DNA from: Flavobacteriaceae bacterium UBA980
GTDB taxonomy: Bacteria > Bacteroidota > Bacteroidia > Flavobacteriales > Flavobacteriaceae
DNA: 64,000 nucleotides
Assembly: GCA_002292265.1 (NCBI GenBank)
Contig: DBBQ01000015.1
Span: forward strand, 62,001 to 126,000
Direction: 5' to 3'
Shown: positions 37,086-58,440 of the stretch, one piece after another
Layout of the letters: every line of letters starts with the position of its first letter
Numbering within the stretch: position 1 is the first letter of the stretch
Made by a program: the position numbers and the translations under genes
The notes under the pieces: generated by a model
Databases searched by the model: none
Told to the model about the DNA's origin: nothing
Seen by the model: only the letters and a program-made list of their open reading frames with translations

Positions 37086-37456
37086 ATGACTAAGCAATTA
37101 TTTTTATCTGGAATTGCAGGCTTTGTCGTTTATTTTTTATTGGGATGGCTTGCTTATGGAATTTTATTCACCGAGGAAACTACGGGTGAAGAATCCATGT
37201 TATTTATCGCTTTGGGTTGTTTGTTTTACGCCTTTGTATATGCAACCATTTTTCGCGTTGGGCAAACATCTCTACCTTTTCTACTGGACTTAAGGCTGGA
37301 GCGATACTTGGCCTTTTATACGAGCTGAGTTGGAAGTTCTTTATGACTATAGGGGACATAGACGTTCTCCCTTTTTTAAAAGGTCTTATCATCAATGTTC
37401 TCATGACTTTACTAATGGCCGGAGTAGTAACTTACGTGAATGGAAAAACTTCCTAG
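37086..37456 (+). pseudogene. Small membrane protein gene broken by a one-base frameshift
   Basis: The first frame codes for residues of a membrane protein (MTKQLFLSGIAGFVVYFLL) up to AFVYATIFRVG. The sense then continues in another frame as ANISTFSTGLKAGAILGLLYELSW and ends in VVTYVNGKTS. The switch falls at GGG (37260-37262): one more G would join both halves into a single 123-residue protein with about four membrane spans, a length and layout seen in small unassigned membrane proteins of Flavobacteriaceae. As written, frame one stops at 37328 after 80 residues. This is either a recent inactivating deletion or a sequencing error in a G run. Function unknown. Confidence 0.8.
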
Positions 37457-52176: not shown

Positions 52177-52275
52177 AGCGTTTAAAGATAAGCATATTCT
52201 AATAACAGTTTATGTTAATAATGTTTTAAAAGATTGCGGGTAAAGATTTCTTACTTTAGCTGTGAAACAAGAACT

Positions 52276-53046
52276 ATGAAAACAAAACCTTTAATCCTTG
52301 TAACCAACGACGATGGTATCACAGCTCCGGGTCTTCGAACCTTGATTGAAATCATGAATGAAATCGGAGAGGTTTTTGTTGTTGCTCCGGACTCTCCACA
52401 GTCGGCTATGGGGCACGCCATAACCATAAATTCTACGCTACATTGTCACAAAATTAAGGTCACAGAAGGCCCTCAAGAAGAATACAGTTGCTCGGGAACA
52501 CCTGCAGACTGTGTGAAACTAGCGGTCAACGAGCTCTTGGACCGCAAACCCGATCTGTGTGTTTCTGGGATTAATCACGGTTCCAATTCCTCTATCAATG
52601 TAATCTATTCGGGCACCATGAGTGCCGCCATGGAAGCCGGGATCGAAGGAATTCCTGCCATTGGTTTTTCACTATTAGACTTTCAGTGGAATGCTGACTT
52701 TAATCCACTGAGAAATTACATCCGCCAGATTACCTTGGAAGCTATATCCCACGGAATCCCTAAAGATGTGGTACTCAATGTCAATTTCCCCAAGCTCAAG
52801 GAGGAAGAAATCAAAGGCATTAAAATCTGTCGGCAAGCCCGGGCCAACTGGGTAGAAGAATTTGACAAAAGAACCAATCCGATGGGAAGAGAATATTATT
52901 GGCTCACCGGAACTTTTGTCAATGAAGACAAAGGGGAAGATACAGACGAATGGGCCTTGAGCCAGGGGTATATCTCCATCGTCCCAACACAATTTGATTT
53001 GACCGCACACCACAGTATTCAACAACTCAACACATGGAATTTATAA
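52276..53046 (+). CDS. surE: 5'/3'-nucleotidase SurE
   Basis: 256 residues from the ATG at 52276. VTNDDGITAPGL at the start holds the metal-binding aspartates, followed by AVAPDSPQSAMGHA-like segment (VAPDSPQSAMG), CSGTPADCVKLA and GINHGSNSS. It hydrolyses nucleoside monophosphates. A frame-open extension to 52234 overlaps the likely promoter (TTG at 52234, TACTTTAG at 52252) and is not used. The next small membrane gene overlaps its end by 13 bases. Confidence 0.94.
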   Translation: MKTKPLILVTNDDGITAPGLRTLIEIMNEIGEVFVVAPDSPQSAMGHAITINSTLHCHKIKVTEGPQEEYSCSGTPADCVKLAVNELLDRKPDLCVSGINHGSNSSINVIYSGTMSAAMEAGIEGIPAIGFSLLDFQWNADFNPLRNYIRQITLEAISHGIPKDVVLNVNFPKLKEEEIKGIKICRQARANWVEEFDKRTNPMGREYYWLTGTFVNEDKGEDTDEWALSQGYISIVPTQFDLTAHHSIQQLNTWNL

Positions 53047-53338: not shown

Positions 53339-54448
53339 GTGAAGTATTATCTCATTTCTGGCGAAGCCTCTGGCGATCTTCACGGCTCACATCTTATTCG
53401 CGCCTTAAAAAAACAGGATCCCAAAGCCATTTTTAAAGCCTGGGGAGGCGATTTGATCCAGCAAGAGGGGGCTGTAGTGGTAAAACACTATAAAGACTTG
53501 GCATTTATGGGCTTTTGGGAAGTCCTTTCAAACCTACCTACTCTGATCCGGAATATTGCCTTTTGTAAAAAAGACATTCTTCAGTTTAAGCCCGATGTCA
53601 TTATTTACGTCGATTATCCAGGTTTCAATCTCCGAATCGCAAATTGGGCCAAAAAAAAAGGTTTTAAAAATCATTATTACATCAGTCCTCAAGTGTGGGC
53701 GTGGAAGGAAAACCGAGTTCAGCAAATGAAGCGCTGTTTAGATGCCTTGTATGTGATCCTCCCTTTTGAAAAAGCTTTTTTTGAAGAAAAATACCAATTC
53801 CCAGTCCATTTTGTGGGTCATCCCTTACAGGACCAATTATCTCTTTTTAAAGAAGAGCAAGACTTTTTCAAAACGCATGCGCTGGATCCAAAAACTCCGA
53901 TTATTGCTTTACTTCCCGGAAGTAGAAAACAGGAAATCCGTAAAATGCTCCCCCTTTTTATTCAAGTGGCTTCCCATTTTAAAGCCTATCAGTTTGTCAT
54001 TGCTGGTGCTCCTGGTATTTCTTCAGAGTACTACGATTCATTCATTGAGAATGCTTCGGTAAAAATACTACACTCCCATACCATCGGACTCTTAAAAAAA
54101 AGTAAGGCAGCGCTCGTCACGAGTGGAACTGCTACCTTAGAAACAGCACTTTTGGGCGTTCCTCAATTAGTGTGTTACAAAAGCAATCCCATAAACTACT
54201 GGATTGGGAAAAAAATTGTGAAACTCAAACACATTTCTTTGGTTAATTTAATTCTTGACCGAACAGCAGTTACTGAGCTGATACAAGAGGAATGTAATCT
54301 TGAAAATCTAAATGAACATCTTGACACTCTTTTGAAAAAGAGTAGCCTTGATAAAATCCAAAAGGAGTATCTAGATTTAAAAAAACAACTGGGCGATCCT
54401 GGCGCTAGCGAAAAAACGGCTACGCTTATTTACAAGGCCATTTCCTAA
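53339..54448 (+). CDS. lpxB: Lipid-A-disaccharide synthase
   Basis: 369 residues from a GTG start. ISGEASGDLHGSHL near the start, YYISPQVWAWKENR, LLPGSRKQEIRKM and VTSGTATLETALLG are LpxB (glycosyltransferase family 19) landmarks. It joins two acylated glucosamine units in lipid A synthesis at the cytoplasmic face of the inner membrane. The damaged comEC gene follows after 42 bases. Confidence 0.96.
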   Translation: MKYYLISGEASGDLHGSHLIRALKKQDPKAIFKAWGGDLIQQEGAVVVKHYKDLAFMGFWEVLSNLPTLIRNIAFCKKDILQFKPDVIIYVDYPGFNLRIANWAKKKGFKNHYYISPQVWAWKENRVQQMKRCLDALYVILPFEKAFFEEKYQFPVHFVGHPLQDQLSLFKEEQDFFKTHALDPKTPIIALLPGSRKQEIRKMLPLFIQVASHFKAYQFVIAGAPGISSEYYDSFIENASVKILHSHTIGLLKKSKAALVTSGTATLETALLGVPQLVCYKSNPINYWIGKKIVKLKHISLVNLILDRTAVTELIQEECNLENLNEHLDTLLKKSSLDKIQKEYLDLKKQLGDPGASEKTATLIYKAIS

Positions 54449-54490: not shown

Positions 54491-56510
54491 ATGCGTTTGC
54501 CCCGATCCTTTCTCTACCCATTGGTGGTTTTATTTACTTTAGGAGGTATAGGTTTTCATCTTTTTAAACTCCTCTCGTCATGGCTTTTTCTTGTCCTTTT
54601 TTTGTTTTTTCTTCTAGGCGCATTTTTACTTAAAAATAGCCAAAGACAATTCAAGAGTTTGTTATTATACGCTTGTTATTTTTGCATGGGCTAACTGAAT
54701 TTTCAAGCCTTTTACCATCAAGACAAAACACATTACCTCCAAAATCCTATTTCTCCGAGCTCCGGATTCAAAAAAATTGAGGTCTTGGAAATACTTTATG
54801 AAACGACTTTTTCTTTTGCGTATATCGTTCAACTGAAATCCACTGGAACAAGTCCAGCCTCGGGCAAATTAATTGTATATCAAAAAAAGATAGTCTCGTG
54901 GATGCTTATCAGTTGGGTCAGAAAATTCTTACAACAGCGGCCCTCGTTCCTATTGACGAACCTAGAAATCCAGGCGCTTTTTCATATAAGAAGTATCTAG
55001 AAAATTTGTCGGTTTACGCGCAGCTAGAGTTGAATACAAAAAATACAATACCCTTAAAAGCACCTGAAACTTCTCTTCATCATCGAATGGTGCAGTTGAG
55101 AAAACAAATCCTTTCTAAGATTGAAAACAGCACCCTTCAAAATGAATCCAAAGGAATACTTCAAGCCTTGTTATTGGCAGAGCGAAAAGCCATCGGAGAA
55201 GAACAGATCGAAGACTATGCGTGTGCTGGTGTGTTACATCTTTTGGTACTGTCTGGCCTACACATTGGTCTTCTTGTAGAACTATTACTTTTGCTTTTGA
55301 GCCCTTTGTTGTGGTTTCGTCATGGGTCTATTTTTCGACTGAGTATTATACTTAGCGTTCTTTGGCTTTTTACCTTTTTTGTGGGCTTACCGGCCTCTGT
55401 TGTCCGTGCGGTAACTCTCTTTTCCTTTTTAACCGTAGGACGTTTTATTCATCAAGGGAAAAATACATTTCATCTCACGGTAGTTTCTTTTTTAGTTTTA
55501 TTAGTCGCATATCCCCCCTTTTTAAAACAAATTGGATTTCAATTTAGCTTTTTAGCTGTCTTTGGTATTTTGTGGATTCATCCGATCCTTCAAAGATTTT
55601 GGAACCCTAAGATCGGTTGGATAAGAAAGTATTGGCAGTGGACTACCGTAAGTCTGGCCGCACAAATGGCCGTCGGTCCTTTGAGTGTCTTTTACTTTCA
55701 TCAATTTCCTAGTTTATTTTTGATCAGCAATCTTTTGATTATTCCTTTTTTGGAGTTTTTCTGGTTTTGGTCATGGCTGTTTTTGTGATGCTTCTATTTG
55801 ACCTACTTCCCCATTGTATGGGAACATTCTTCGATGGAGCAGTTCAACTTTTAAATGGGTCCGTTTCTTGGATTGCTCAGAATGACCCTTTGCCATTGGA
55901 TCAGCTTTACCTTCCTGTTCCCGTAATGTTAGGGCTCTATTTAGCTCTCTTTTTTGTCGTGCTTTCCCTAGAAAAAAAGCGTTTCCCTCAATGGGTGGGA
56001 ACCGCAATTTCTTTTTTTATCTTACTCTAGTTGATCCAGCTAGAACAAGAAAAAACCTCAAATGAACACGCTTTTTGGATATTCTATTTACACCGAGAAA
56101 GCAGCTACGGCTATTTTAAATCAGGAGTTTTTTACCATCATTCATCTAACCCTAATAAAAACCGACGTATCCTTTCCGATTTTGCAAATTCTCGACTCCT
56201 TCACCGCTTCGAAAAACTTCCCATCAAGAATTTTTTTAGCGTAGATCAATTTCATTTATTCATCTTGGACAACGAAAAAAGATATACGCTCCCCAATTAT
56301 AGTCCGACTCATATCCTGTTGCGAAACGACCCAAAAATCAATCTAGATCGCTTGCTTTAAATCCATCAACCTCAACTCATTGTCGCAGACAGTTCAAACA
56401 GTCCACGGACGGTGAGCAGATGGGAAAAAAGTTGTAAAAAATACTCGATTCCATTCTACGATACACGAAAAAGTGGTGCTTTAAAAATCAGCCTCGAAAA
56501 CGAGGAATAA
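54491..56510 (+). pseudogene. comEC: Degraded comEC (DNA uptake channel) pseudogene
   Basis: Pieces of one ComEC/Rec2 protein lie in order but in several frames. Key remnants are HLLVLSGLHIGLL (competence-domain signature) and LPASVVRAVTLFSF, with multiple membrane spans. Five lesions break it: an in-frame TAA at 54692, a lost A in the seven-A run 54882-54888, a lost G at 55752-55753, an in-frame TAG at 56028, and an in-frame TAA at 56358. With those repaired the protein would be about 670 residues, a normal length for Flavobacteriaceae. It has the DUF4131, channel and C-terminal parts (ending near IPFYDTRKSG). ComEC imports single-stranded DNA during transformation; this copy cannot. The end overlaps the convergent thioredoxin-like gene by 23 bases. 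Confidence 0.9.
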
Positions 56511-57033
56511 AGTTTTTCTTGTAGATTTCGAAGTCTTCAGGTTTAGAAAATACTTGATAATCTCCCTGCTTGATCATTTTTAAATAGAGTTCGATTTGTT
56601 TGGGCTTGTGATATCCTACTAAGGGCATTATAGGGTCTCCCTCTTCGCTAAAGAAAACCATCGTAGGATACCCTTTAACGCCTAGAAACTGGGTGAACTG
56701 ATGGGTTGCGTTACGTCCTTTTCGGTTGGGGTCATGGTTGGGATTAGTGTAGGTTTGATCGTAATATTGAATTTCTTCTGTCCCTTCCGCATTGAATTTT
56801 ACTGCGTAGTAATGTTCAGAGATATAGCGGGAGACATCGGGATTTTGAAAGGTGTTCTTGTCTAATAATTTACAGGGACCGCACCAGTCCGTATAGACGT
56901 CCATAAAGATTTTCTTGGGCTCTTTTTTCTGAGCCTCTCGGGCTTCAGCCAAAGTCATCCATTGAATTTTTTGAGCAAAAACAGTACTCAGTCCAAGTAG
57001 GAAAAAAAATGTTAGTAGAATGGAATTTTTCAT
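56488..57033 (-). CDS. Secreted thioredoxin-like protein
   Basis: 181 residues with a signal peptide (residues about 1-20, FFFLLGLSTVFAQ). The thioredoxin domain carries the redox motif WCGPCK in FMDVYTDWCGPCKLLDK and the cis-proline region VKGYPTMVFF. It most likely reduces or isomerises disulfides in the periplasm. The substrate is unknown. It precedes no other gene closely; the POT transporter gene lies 48 bases upstream on the same strand. Confidence 0.9.
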   Translation of the reverse strand: MKNSILLTFFFLLGLSTVFAQKIQWMTLAEAREAQKKEPKKIFMDVYTDWCGPCKLLDKNTFQNPDVSRYISEHYYAVKFNAEGTEEIQYYDQTYTNPNHDPNRKGRNATHQFTQFLGVKGYPTMVFFSEEGDPIMPLVGYHKPKQIELYLKMIKQGDYQVFSKPEDFEIYKKNFIPRFRG

Positions 57034-57081: not shown

Positions 57082-58440
57082 CTATTGCGCTTTCTCTAAA
57101 TCCTCTGCACCGTGCGTTAACCTTTTTAAGGGTTTTAAGAGTAAAATAACCGATATCGCTATCAGGGTACAAAAAATAAAAATGCCTGTAAAAATTTGCT
57201 TTTCTCCTGCGGTTTCAGCGTAGCCCCCTATACTTGCGGCAAGCTTGTTTCCCAAACCAGTAGCTGCCCAATACAACCCCATAATAGAGGCTGCATATTT
57301 CACAGGAGCCAATTTGGTAATAAACGATAAAGAAACCGGAGAGGCACATAACTCACCAATAGTATGAAATAGATATGCTAATACCAGCCAATACATCGCT
57401 GATTTACCGGCTACCTCATAATCCAAAGCTGCAAAGCGCATAAATAGAAAGCCCATACCCATGATTAAAATTCCAATTGCAATTTTATACAAAGAGGAAG
57501 CTTCTTTCCCTTTTAACTTCCAACGCATCCAAAATCCACCGACTCCAATAGCCAAGGTGATGATAAAAAAGGAATTTAAGGACTGGAACCAAGAAGCTGG
57601 GATTTCCATCCCCATAAGCATGCGATCTGTTTTTTGCTTAGCATACAAATTCATCAATCCTCCTGCTTGCTCAAAAGCTCCCCAAAAAAAGATAATCAAT
57701 AGAAAGGAAATTAAAAGTACTTTGACTCGGTCTTTTTCTACAGCGGTTAACTTTCTTTTTCTCAGTTCACGGTCAGGATGTGACTCTTTTCCAATAAAAT
57801 CTCCTACTCCCACTAAGTATTTTTGACCGTAGAAATACGTAATTTGACCAATGAACATTCCTATCGCGGCCAAACCGAAACCGTAGTGCCAGTTGTAGGT
57901 TTCACCGACCCATCCACATAGAATAGGTGCTGCAAAACCACCGATGTTGATCCCCATATAAAAAATATAAAATCCAAGGTCTCTTCTTTCATCCCCTTTG
58001 GGGTAGAGGCCTCCCACCATGCTTGAGATATTGGGTTTGAGTCCACCCACTCCTAAAATCACAAAAAAGCATCCCAGGTAAAAGCTGAATTCGGTATCAA
58101 AAGCTAAAATCGTATGTCCAATACACAATAAAATCCCTCCTAACATCACGGTTTTCTTTTGCCCCAAAAGGTTGTCCGCTATCCAGCCCCCGGGTACAGA
58201 AGCCAAATAAACAAGCATAGTGTACCAACCGTAGAGTGCAATAGCCTCCGAATTGGTCCAACCAAAACCGGGATTGTCCGTATTGGTTTTAGCAACGAGA
58301 AAAAGGGTGAACAAAGCACGCATTCCATAGTATGAAAATCGTTCCCACAATTCTGTAAAAAAGAGAACATATAGCCCGGGTGGATGACCAAAGATTGTTT
58401 TTGTTTCAGAAAGAGATTTTGCGTCTGCCATGAGCTTCAA
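57082..58440 (-). CDS. POT family proton-coupled peptide transporter
   Basis: 452 residues with about 12-14 membrane spans. The POT signature ELWERFSYYGMRAL (ExxERFxYY) lies near residue 35. Other family segments are GGWIADNLLGQKK and FYIFYMGINIGGF. It imports di- or tripeptides using the proton gradient. An alternative ATG three codons later is possible. The 360 bases upstream hold no clear gene. Confidence 0.94.
   Translation of the reverse strand: MKLMADAKSLSETKTIFGHPPGLYVLFFTELWERFSYYGMRALFTLFLVAKTNTDNPGFGWTNSEAIALYGWYTMLVYLASVPGGWIADNLLGQKKTVMLGGILLCIGHTILAFDTEFSFYLGCFFVILGVGGLKPNISSMVGGLYPKGDERRDLGFYIFYMGINIGGFAAPILCGWVGETYNWHYGFGLAAIGMFIGQITYFYGQKYLVGVGDFIGKESHPDRELRKRKLTAVEKDRVKVLLISFLLIIFFWGAFEQAGGLMNLYAKQKTDRMLMGMEIPASWFQSLNSFFIITLAIGVGGFWMRWKLKGKEASSLYKIAIGILIMGMGFLFMRFAALDYEVAGKSAMYWLVLAYLFHTIGELCASPVSLSFITKLAPVKYAASIMGLYWAATGLGNKLAASIGGYAETAGEKQIFTGIFIFCTLIAISVILLLKPLKRLTHGAEDLEKAQ

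What the first reader, a model, noticed from the sequence alone, without database searches (positions are those of the whole stretch)
54491..56510. comEC broken by three in-frame stops and two one-base frameshifts
The residual protein pieces line up as one ComEC of about 670 residues, the right size for the family. Damage is spread over the entire gene: TAA at 54692, a lost A in the A7 run at 54882, a lost G at 55752, TAG at 56028, TAA at 56358. All three stops could be single-step changes from glutamine codons (CAA/CAG). Neighbouring long genes are intact, so a high overall error rate is unlikely. This suggests the lineage lost natural transformation some time ago, unless another comEC exists.
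Basis: partly seen in the sequence, partly recalled or inferred. Interest (0 to 1): 0.75.

Follow-up and report, generated by a model that had tools for sequence, protein, structure and literature searches.

The report
Decaying DNA-uptake genes in Flavobacteriaceae
The gene for the DNA-import channel ComEC is truly broken in this environmental, probably marine, Flavobacteriaceae genome, and so are three partner genes; related species show every stage from open gene to near-clean deletion, a natural record of natural transformation being given up again and again.

Summary
Confirmed and extended. 54491-56510 is a comEC pseudogene with three in-frame stops and two frame changes, in its usual place between lpxB and a thioredoxin-like gene. 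No second comEC was found in the 91%-complete genome. dprA (two stops, one frame change), comF (one stop) and a ComEA-like gene (stop, 111-base deletion) are broken on other contigs; comM is open. Among 38 genomes of the genus the comEC site was readable in 35: 6 open full-length, 5 full-length but broken, 5 scars, 18 without recognisable comEC (none of the five genes found beyond weak sub-cut-off matches), 1 disrupted. On a seven-gene tree that needs at least 9 losses (6-7 with weak nodes collapsed). Sister species G011 shares none of the dprA, comF or ComEA-like lesions. An intact metagenome ComEC is 94.6% identical to the broken pieces, so the loss is recent, not old. Control genes are broken in 4 of 212 copies, competence genes in 28 of 79 loci. 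In 199 genomes of the family comEC and dprA are missing together in 15. Gene death as such is ordinary; the graded, parallel, pathway-wide series is the interesting part. Cause unknown; transformation itself untested.

The parts
54491..56510 (+). comEC pseudogene (ComEC/Rec2 type; DUF4131 + Competence domains, no Lactamase_B domain seen in two intact relatives)
54692..54694 (+). in-frame stop (TAA), lesion 1
54847..54889 (+). interval holding the first frame change, lesion 2 (A7 run at 54882-54888)
   Evidence: overlap of two tblastn matches
55746..55761 (+). interval holding the second frame change, lesion 3
   Evidence: overlap of two tblastn matches
56028..56030 (+). in-frame stop (TAG), lesion 4
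56358..56360 (+). in-frame stop (TAA), lesion 5
53339..54448 (+). lpxB, intact left neighbour; anchor for the syntenic comparison
56488..57033 (-). thioredoxin-like protein gene, intact convergent right neighbour; anchor for the syntenic comparison
52234..53046 (+). surE, intact (control gene; true start probably a little downstream)

Best explanation
comEC of this genome is a genuine, recently inactivated pseudogene, and the natural-transformation pathway of the species has lost selection. SHOWN: five disabling lesions in comEC; broken dprA, comF and ComEA-like genes elsewhere in the genome; open comM; open orthologues of comEC at the same site in relatives; many separate losses in the genus, from a single frame change to near-clean deletion. 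INFERRED: that without ComEC, DprA, ComF and ComEA the cell cannot take up and recombine DNA (their counterparts were essential in Riemerella, PMC8459023), and that once one gene fails the others drift, collect stops and frame changes, shrink to scars and are deleted. The set of genes already hit differs by lineage: in G014 comEC is gone while the other four are open; in G017 comEC is open while dprA and comM are broken. Cause, inferred with low confidence: the benefit of transformation no longer pays in small-genome plankton, so inactivating mutations are tolerated or favoured.
For: Lesions. One PF03772 match in the genome. Other genes of G000: dprA two stops plus one frame change, comF one stop, ComEA-like one stop plus 111-base deletion, comM open over its full length. 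comEC site in 38 genus genomes: 6 open, 5 full-length broken, 5 scars, 18 without recognisable comEC, 1 disrupted, 3 unreadable. Fewest irreversible losses on the best tree: comEC 9, dprA 12, comF 8, ComEA-like 12, comM 11; with nodes under 90 or 95 collapsed 6-7, 10-11, 7, 10, 7-8. In one search the comEC tree and the seven-gene tree agree where both are resolved, which speaks for vertical descent. No lesion of dprA, comF or ComEA-like shared with sister G011. Breakage 28 of 79 competence-gene loci against 4 of 212 control copies. Family: comEC and dprA both absent 15, comEC only 5, dprA only 1, both present 178, of 199 (test). Metagenome ORFs P0121 and P0122 (91-97% identical) start where the window's frame reopens after its first frame change.
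Against: No raw reads, so the lesions are not confirmed at read level. comM is open and 88% identical to G015's, which a long-dead pathway would not predict. Relaxed selection on the broken comEC is only suggested: 21 against 10 (p 0.07) with the nearest outgroup, 8-13 against 6-10 with four others, and 19-38 against 15-26 in four tests towards P0245, none significant. The wider comEC tree joins G019 with the G015/G000 group (96/94), where the 11-genome seven-gene tree has a weak contrary node (83/83). The genomes are mostly fragmented assemblies, 54-98% complete, so 'not found' for dprA, comF, ComEA-like and comM is weaker than for comEC, whose site was read directly. No phenotype was tested.
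Confidence: 0.88

Rival explanations
1. The stops and frame changes are sequencing or assembly errors.
For: No reads at hand; one frame change lies in an interval with an A7 run, a usual place for errors; small frames at 37086-37456 may be another split gene; control genes of three relatives also carry breaks (G004, G021, G032).
Against: Five lesions fall in one 2-kb gene and more in three partner genes on three other contigs, while control genes are broken in 4 of 212 copies. Metagenome ORFs P0121 and P0122 begin at the same reopened frame. Loss of most or all of the gene in 23 genomes (5 scars, 18 without it) cannot be base errors.
Confidence: 0.04
2. The loss is old and was inherited from the common ancestor of the window's lineage and the 11 species of its clade that lack comEC altogether, as the first reader's 'some time ago' implies.
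For: On the best tree none of the 13 species beside G015 in its clade has a working comEC, so parsimony alone counts one loss there.
Against: Intact ComEC proteins lie next to the broken one: P0246 at 94.6%, and further out P0245, P0248 and P0247. No shared lesion with G011 in the three genes compared. The node that joins the 13 has support of only 83/78.
Confidence: 0.06
3. Inactivation was driven by conflict with mobile elements or phages, as proposed for transformable pathogens, rather than by relaxed selection or streamlining.
For: Such conflict is the subject of PMC11472951 and PMC4774983 (search listing with start of abstract only). In G011 the comEC remnant runs into unrelated sequence.
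Against: The lesions read here are point stops, one-base changes and deletions. In 33 genomes the spacing between the two neighbours leaves no room for an inserted element; G022 is cut by a contig end and G011 is undecided. I did not search for prophages or insertion sequences.
Confidence: 0.15
4. The gene is expressed by recoding (stop read-through and programmed frameshifting).
For: None found.
Against: Three stops at separate places, two frame changes, different lesions in other species' comEC and loss of the gene in related species. Neighbouring genes end normally at stop codons of the same kinds.
Confidence: 0.01

Closest known systems
Frequent loss of competence in Pasteurellaceae (PMC1626085, 2006; passages read)
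   Same: Competence genes broken by stops, frame changes and deletions in individual species (in H. ducreyi comA, comB and comM and more); competence held to be ancestral and frequently lost.
   Different: The passage speaks of 0, 1 or 2 such mutations in the strains it discusses. Here one genome has lesions in four genes, and the series runs on to loss of recognisable comEC in 18 of 38 species of one genus.
ComEC loss in endosymbionts and intracellular pathogens (Blattabacterium, Buchnera, Rickettsia, Francisella, Coxiella; PMC6299819, passages read)
   Same: Loss of the whole comEC family in lineages with reduced genomes.
   Different: Those are host-bound lineages.
Natural-transformation gene set of Riemerella anatipestifer (PMC8459023; abstract and Results read)
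   Same: ComEC, DprA, ComF, ComM, a helix-hairpin-helix protein, a DUF1343 protein, and an outer-membrane protein paired with a DUF5689/DUF5017 protein: genes of each description are found, open or decayed, in this genus.
   Different: Riemerella is transformable. In this genus the outer-membrane pair is found in 3 of 38 genomes, and the DUF1343/NamZ gene is kept in 30 of 38, so that gene does not follow the pathway. Identity with the Riemerella genes rests on domains, not on direct comparison.
comEC interrupted by transposable elements in Piscirickettsia salmonis (PMC12955456; start of abstract only)
   Same: comEC disabled throughout a lineage.
   Different: Insertion elements in a fish pathogen; here point lesions and deletions in an environmental genus.

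Membership tests
ComEC/Rec2 DNA-import channel | Competence domain PF03772 | tested here: met
   E 1.9e-42 on the middle piece
ComEC/Rec2 DNA-import channel | N-terminal DUF4131 domain (the main form in Bacteroidetes, PMC6299819, passages) | tested here: met
   PF13567 nearly whole in intact relatives G015 and G017; only its end on the middle piece of the window gene
ComEC/Rec2 DNA-import channel | One open frame of about 670 residues | tested here: not met
   3 stops, 2 frame changes
Unitary pseudogene | Disabling lesions in the only copy | tested here: met
   single match in a 90.9%-complete genome
Unitary pseudogene | Intact orthologue at the same site in relatives | tested here: met
   6 of 38 genus genomes with an open full-length comEC after lpxB
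Unitary pseudogene | Relaxed selection on the coding sequence | tested here: inconclusive
   21 against 10, p 0.07, with the nearest outgroup; the other tests not significant
Unitary pseudogene | Lesions supported by reads | not testable with these tools
   no reads held
Lost natural-transformation pathway | Other transformation genes decayed in the same genome | tested here: met
   dprA, comF and ComEA-like broken
Lost natural-transformation pathway | All transformation genes decayed | tested here: not met
   comM open over its full length
Lost natural-transformation pathway | No DNA uptake and recombination in the cell | not testable with these tools
   needs a culture
Riemerella-type outer-membrane uptake pair (carboxypeptidase-regulatory-domain protein + DUF5689/DUF5017 protein) | Adjacent genes with these domains | tested here: inconclusive
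   G013 locus L200: DUF5689 clear; PF13715 (30.3 bits, cut-off 32.2) and DUF5017 (25.3 bits, cut-off 28.8) under their cut-offs; not compared with the Riemerella proteins; neither gene found in G000

The most novel reading that the evidence does not exclude
Natural transformation is being dismantled in parallel right now across a genus of free-living, probably marine Flavobacteriaceae: working and broken comEC alleles coexist at about 95% identity, at least nine lineages have lost the gene separately, the outer-membrane uptake pair perhaps goes first and the order of the rest varies, and genes that decay in step with comEC mark the still unknown DNA-uptake machinery of Bacteroidota.
Probability: 0.4. 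Interest if true: 0.72.

Novelty: new member of a known kind. Interest (0 to 1): 0.56.

Why it matters
What keeps natural transformation in bacteria, and what ends it, is an old open question. A genus with open, freshly broken, scarred and deleted copies of the same gene at the same site gives replicated losses that can be set against ecology, phage load and genome size. Genes that decay together with comEC and dprA (here a ComEA-like protein does; DUF1343/NamZ does not) are a filter for the dedicated uptake machinery of Flavobacteriaceae, parts of which have no counterpart in well-known transformation systems (PMC8459023, abstract).

Tried and rejected
Rejected: assembly error as the main cause. 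Rejected: an old inherited loss. Rejected: recoding. Thought unlikely: horizontal replacement of comEC, because its tree agrees with the seven-gene tree where both are resolved; one deep node of the wider comEC tree (96/94) differs from a weak node (83/83) of the seven-gene tree.

Discarded result: one search gave 52 against 10 changes (p 6e-8) for relaxed selection. That count included out-of-frame tails of the tblastn matches. Repeated with each piece cut inside its own frame it fell to 21 against 10 (p 0.07), and the other tests gave nothing. One search had only a partial guard against the same fault; it showed no acceleration in comEC, and repeats its G015 comparison. One search was a quick version of the tree. 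One search counted stops near the true starts of surE and GHMP as breaks; trims the ends. One search printed the control counts and then stopped on a script error; one search ran the competence genes with an identity floor of 30% instead of 35%, otherwise by the same criterion. first tested 29 of 80; the recount is 28 of 79 (5 of 11 near-full-length comEC, 9 of 19 dprA, 5 of 18 comF, 5 of 17 ComEA-like, 4 of 14 comM), tested. These loci were those that the family searches had found, and the Fisher tests ignore relatedness; they are descriptive only.

Rows set aside: in the parsimony G002 and G006 are not on the tree (no lpxB found), G009 is unknown for comEC (contig ends 42 bases after lpxB), G010 for the ComEA-like gene (not found), and G009, G013 and G022 for comM (contig ends). 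dprA of G009 is counted as broken; one search does not flag it. comF of G016 is counted as open; one search shows a stop near its start. The second ComEA-like copy of G013 is left out of the 17. G016's 42 bases are called a scar by eye (likeness to the end of comEC); tblastn gave no match. G037's weak PF03772 match on another contig (22.1 bits, under cut-off) was fetched (L168) but not studied.

Led nowhere: the comF model mostly finds other phosphoribosyltransferases below 30 bits, so presence was judged from the stronger matches. No Rfam or tRNA match in the window.

Full report
What is there. The window is bases 62001-126000 of contig 4 of a 2.09-Mb, 68-contig, 90.9%-complete genome. The nearest named record found is a Flavobacteriaceae MAG, DEBay_Sum22NG08_6, LpxB 78% identical; its contig of 66,062 bases has the same length as that of G011, so they are probably the same genome. 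I did not establish the genus name; that the group is marine or estuarine is my reading of sample names. All 669 residues of the G015 ComEC find a counterpart.

The rest of the pathway in the same genome. PF03772 has one match in the genome, this one. dprA on contig 20 has two stops and a frame change; comF on contig 27 one stop; a ComEA-like helix-hairpin-helix gene on contig 68 a stop and a 111-base deletion; comM on contig 30 is open and 88% identical to that of G015. ComEC, DprA, ComF and a helix-hairpin-helix protein were essential for transformation in Riemerella anatipestifer, and removal of the YifB-family gene (the comM kind) lowered it (PMC8459023, abstract and Results read). That the ComEA-like gene is the counterpart of the Riemerella helix-hairpin-helix gene rests on domain and size; I did not compare them directly. 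Several of its relatives bear names such as 'ComEA family DNA-binding protein'.

The genus. A search of 38 genomes found a ComEC domain in 12, 11 over the cut-off, against 179 of 199 genomes drawn across the family. I read the site between lpxB and the convergent thioredoxin-like gene. Open full-length comEC: G003, G010, G013, G015, G017, G019 (6). Full-length but broken: G000, G012, G020, G022 (cut by the contig end at 90%), G025 (5). Scars, with the distance between the two neighbours: G007 533, G008 463, G001 318, G014 255, G016 42 bases (5; G016 by eye). No recognisable comEC: 18 genomes with -4 to 199 bases. In these 18 neither dprA nor the ComEA-like domain was found, apart from one weak dprA match in G024, and the comM and comF models gave only weak matches that look like other families. 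G011 keeps about 150 bases of comEC and then runs into unrelated sequence. Unreadable: G009 (contig end), G002 and G006 (no lpxB found). Total 38.

Controls. LpxB was found in 36 of 38 and the DUF1343/NamZ gene in 30 of 38, so absence of the competence genes is not just poor assembly. Seven neighbouring genes are broken in 4 of 212 copies, the five competence genes in 28 of 79 loci by nearly the same criterion (Fisher p 4e-14, ignoring relatedness).

How many losses. On a seven-gene tree of 36 genus genomes and 8 outgroups, with loss irreversible, comEC was lost at least 9 times, dprA 12, comF 8, ComEA-like 12, comM 11; with nodes under 90 or 95 collapsed the figures are 6-7, 10-11, 7, 10 and 7-8. 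comEC follows the seven-gene tree where both are resolved; the wider comEC tree differs at one deep node. Sister species G000 and G011 share no lesion in dprA, comF or the ComEA-like gene, which is open in G011, so these genes died separately. The sets hit differ: G014 has lost comEC while dprA, comF, ComEA-like and comM are open; G017 has an open comEC but a broken dprA and a stop in comM; G020 has a broken comEC and the other four open. comM was not found whole in G001, G006 and G016, which have an open dprA, so no single order holds.

How recent. Among metagenome proteins an intact 673-residue ComEC, P0246 (cluster of 229 sequences), is 617 of 652 residues identical to the pieces in the window. 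In a tree it is sister to the window gene plus two truncated ORFs, P0121 and P0122 (support 97/91 for the three, 100/100 with P0246). Two further intact proteins, P0245 and P0248, also have truncated neighbours (P0124; P0125 and P0128), but those sit on contigs under 2.5 kb and may be cut by contig ends. P0121 and P0122 begin where the window's frame reopens after its first frame change, which supports the break from other assemblies; P0121 then ends in another frame than the window's. A third such ORF, P0123, has no source shown, so I do not lean on it. Relative-rate counts give 21 changes on the window's side against 10 on P0246's (p 0.07) and no significant excess in the eleven other tests. 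Under a simple mutation model one nonsense change per 13 missense is expected, so three stops beside about 21 changes fit neutral decay of about that age. This is an inference from small numbers.

Outer-membrane part. Riemerella also needs an outer-membrane protein with a carboxypeptidase-regulatory domain and its DUF5689/DUF5017 neighbour (PMC8459023). A pair of this make-up sits in G013, two of the domains scoring just under their cut-offs. DUF5689 is found in G013, G015 and G017 only, of 38; strong matches to the partner in the same three, with a stop in G015 and in pieces in G017, plus two weak matches (G014, G032) at 22-23% identity. G013 in turn has a stop in dprA. So no genome examined shows all seven genes open. 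Either the pair goes first, or it is not needed in this genus; the data do not decide.

The family. In the same 199 genomes comEC is missing from 20 and dprA from 16, both from 15 (Fisher p 2e-17). comEC is missing from 18 of 45 genomes of at most 2.5 Mb and 2 of 154 larger ones (counted by hand; test). Some of these genomes are incomplete, and their relatedness was not modelled.

What it is and what is known. Frequent, recent loss of competence is the published model for Pasteurellaceae (PMC1626085, passages read), and loss of the ComEC family in host-bound lineages is described (PMC6299819, passages read). Eight searches of the paper library showed no title or abstract opening on decay of competence genes in marine Flavobacteriaceae; two searches listed only 20 of 60 and 15 of 23 papers, and most subscription journals are not held, so this is no proof of absence from print. 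I rate the kind as known and the case as a rich new member of it.

Cause. I favour relaxed selection in small-genome plankton, with low confidence. Loss of dprA, which serves recombination rather than uptake, together with comEC argues that the recombination benefit, not only DNA as food, was given up (inference). Conflict with mobile elements was not tested.

Noticed in passing
window 37086-37456 (+): Two overlapping small open frames (80 and 79 residues) look like one small membrane protein with a frame change; no Pfam match to either piece. A second possible broken gene in the window.
   Followed up: partly
L133 (G011) from the comEC start to the contig end: About 150 bases of comEC remnant, then some 900 bases of unrelated sequence up to the contig end; insertion, rearrangement or assembly join not decided.
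   Followed up: partly
L238 (G013 contig 78): A second, strongly decayed copy of the ComEA-like gene beside the open one on contig 1 of the same genome; a paralogue or a contaminant contig.
   Followed up: no
window 57082-58440 (-) and relatives: The POT-family transporter next to the thioredoxin-like gene is 86-94% identical in many relatives but 32-34% in others (G003, G007, G008, G010, G012-G015, G032, G033), and no POT match was found in the stretch of G037, as if different transporters occupy the site.
   Followed up: no
genus genomes, PF07075: The DUF1343/NamZ domain of a gene essential for transformation in Riemerella is kept in 30 of 38 genomes, including many without comEC, so here it probably serves something else.
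   Followed up: partly
G178 (3.1 Mb, 1 contig, 99% complete): A larger, complete genome of the family with neither a comEC nor a dprA match: loss is not confined to small genomes.
   Followed up: no
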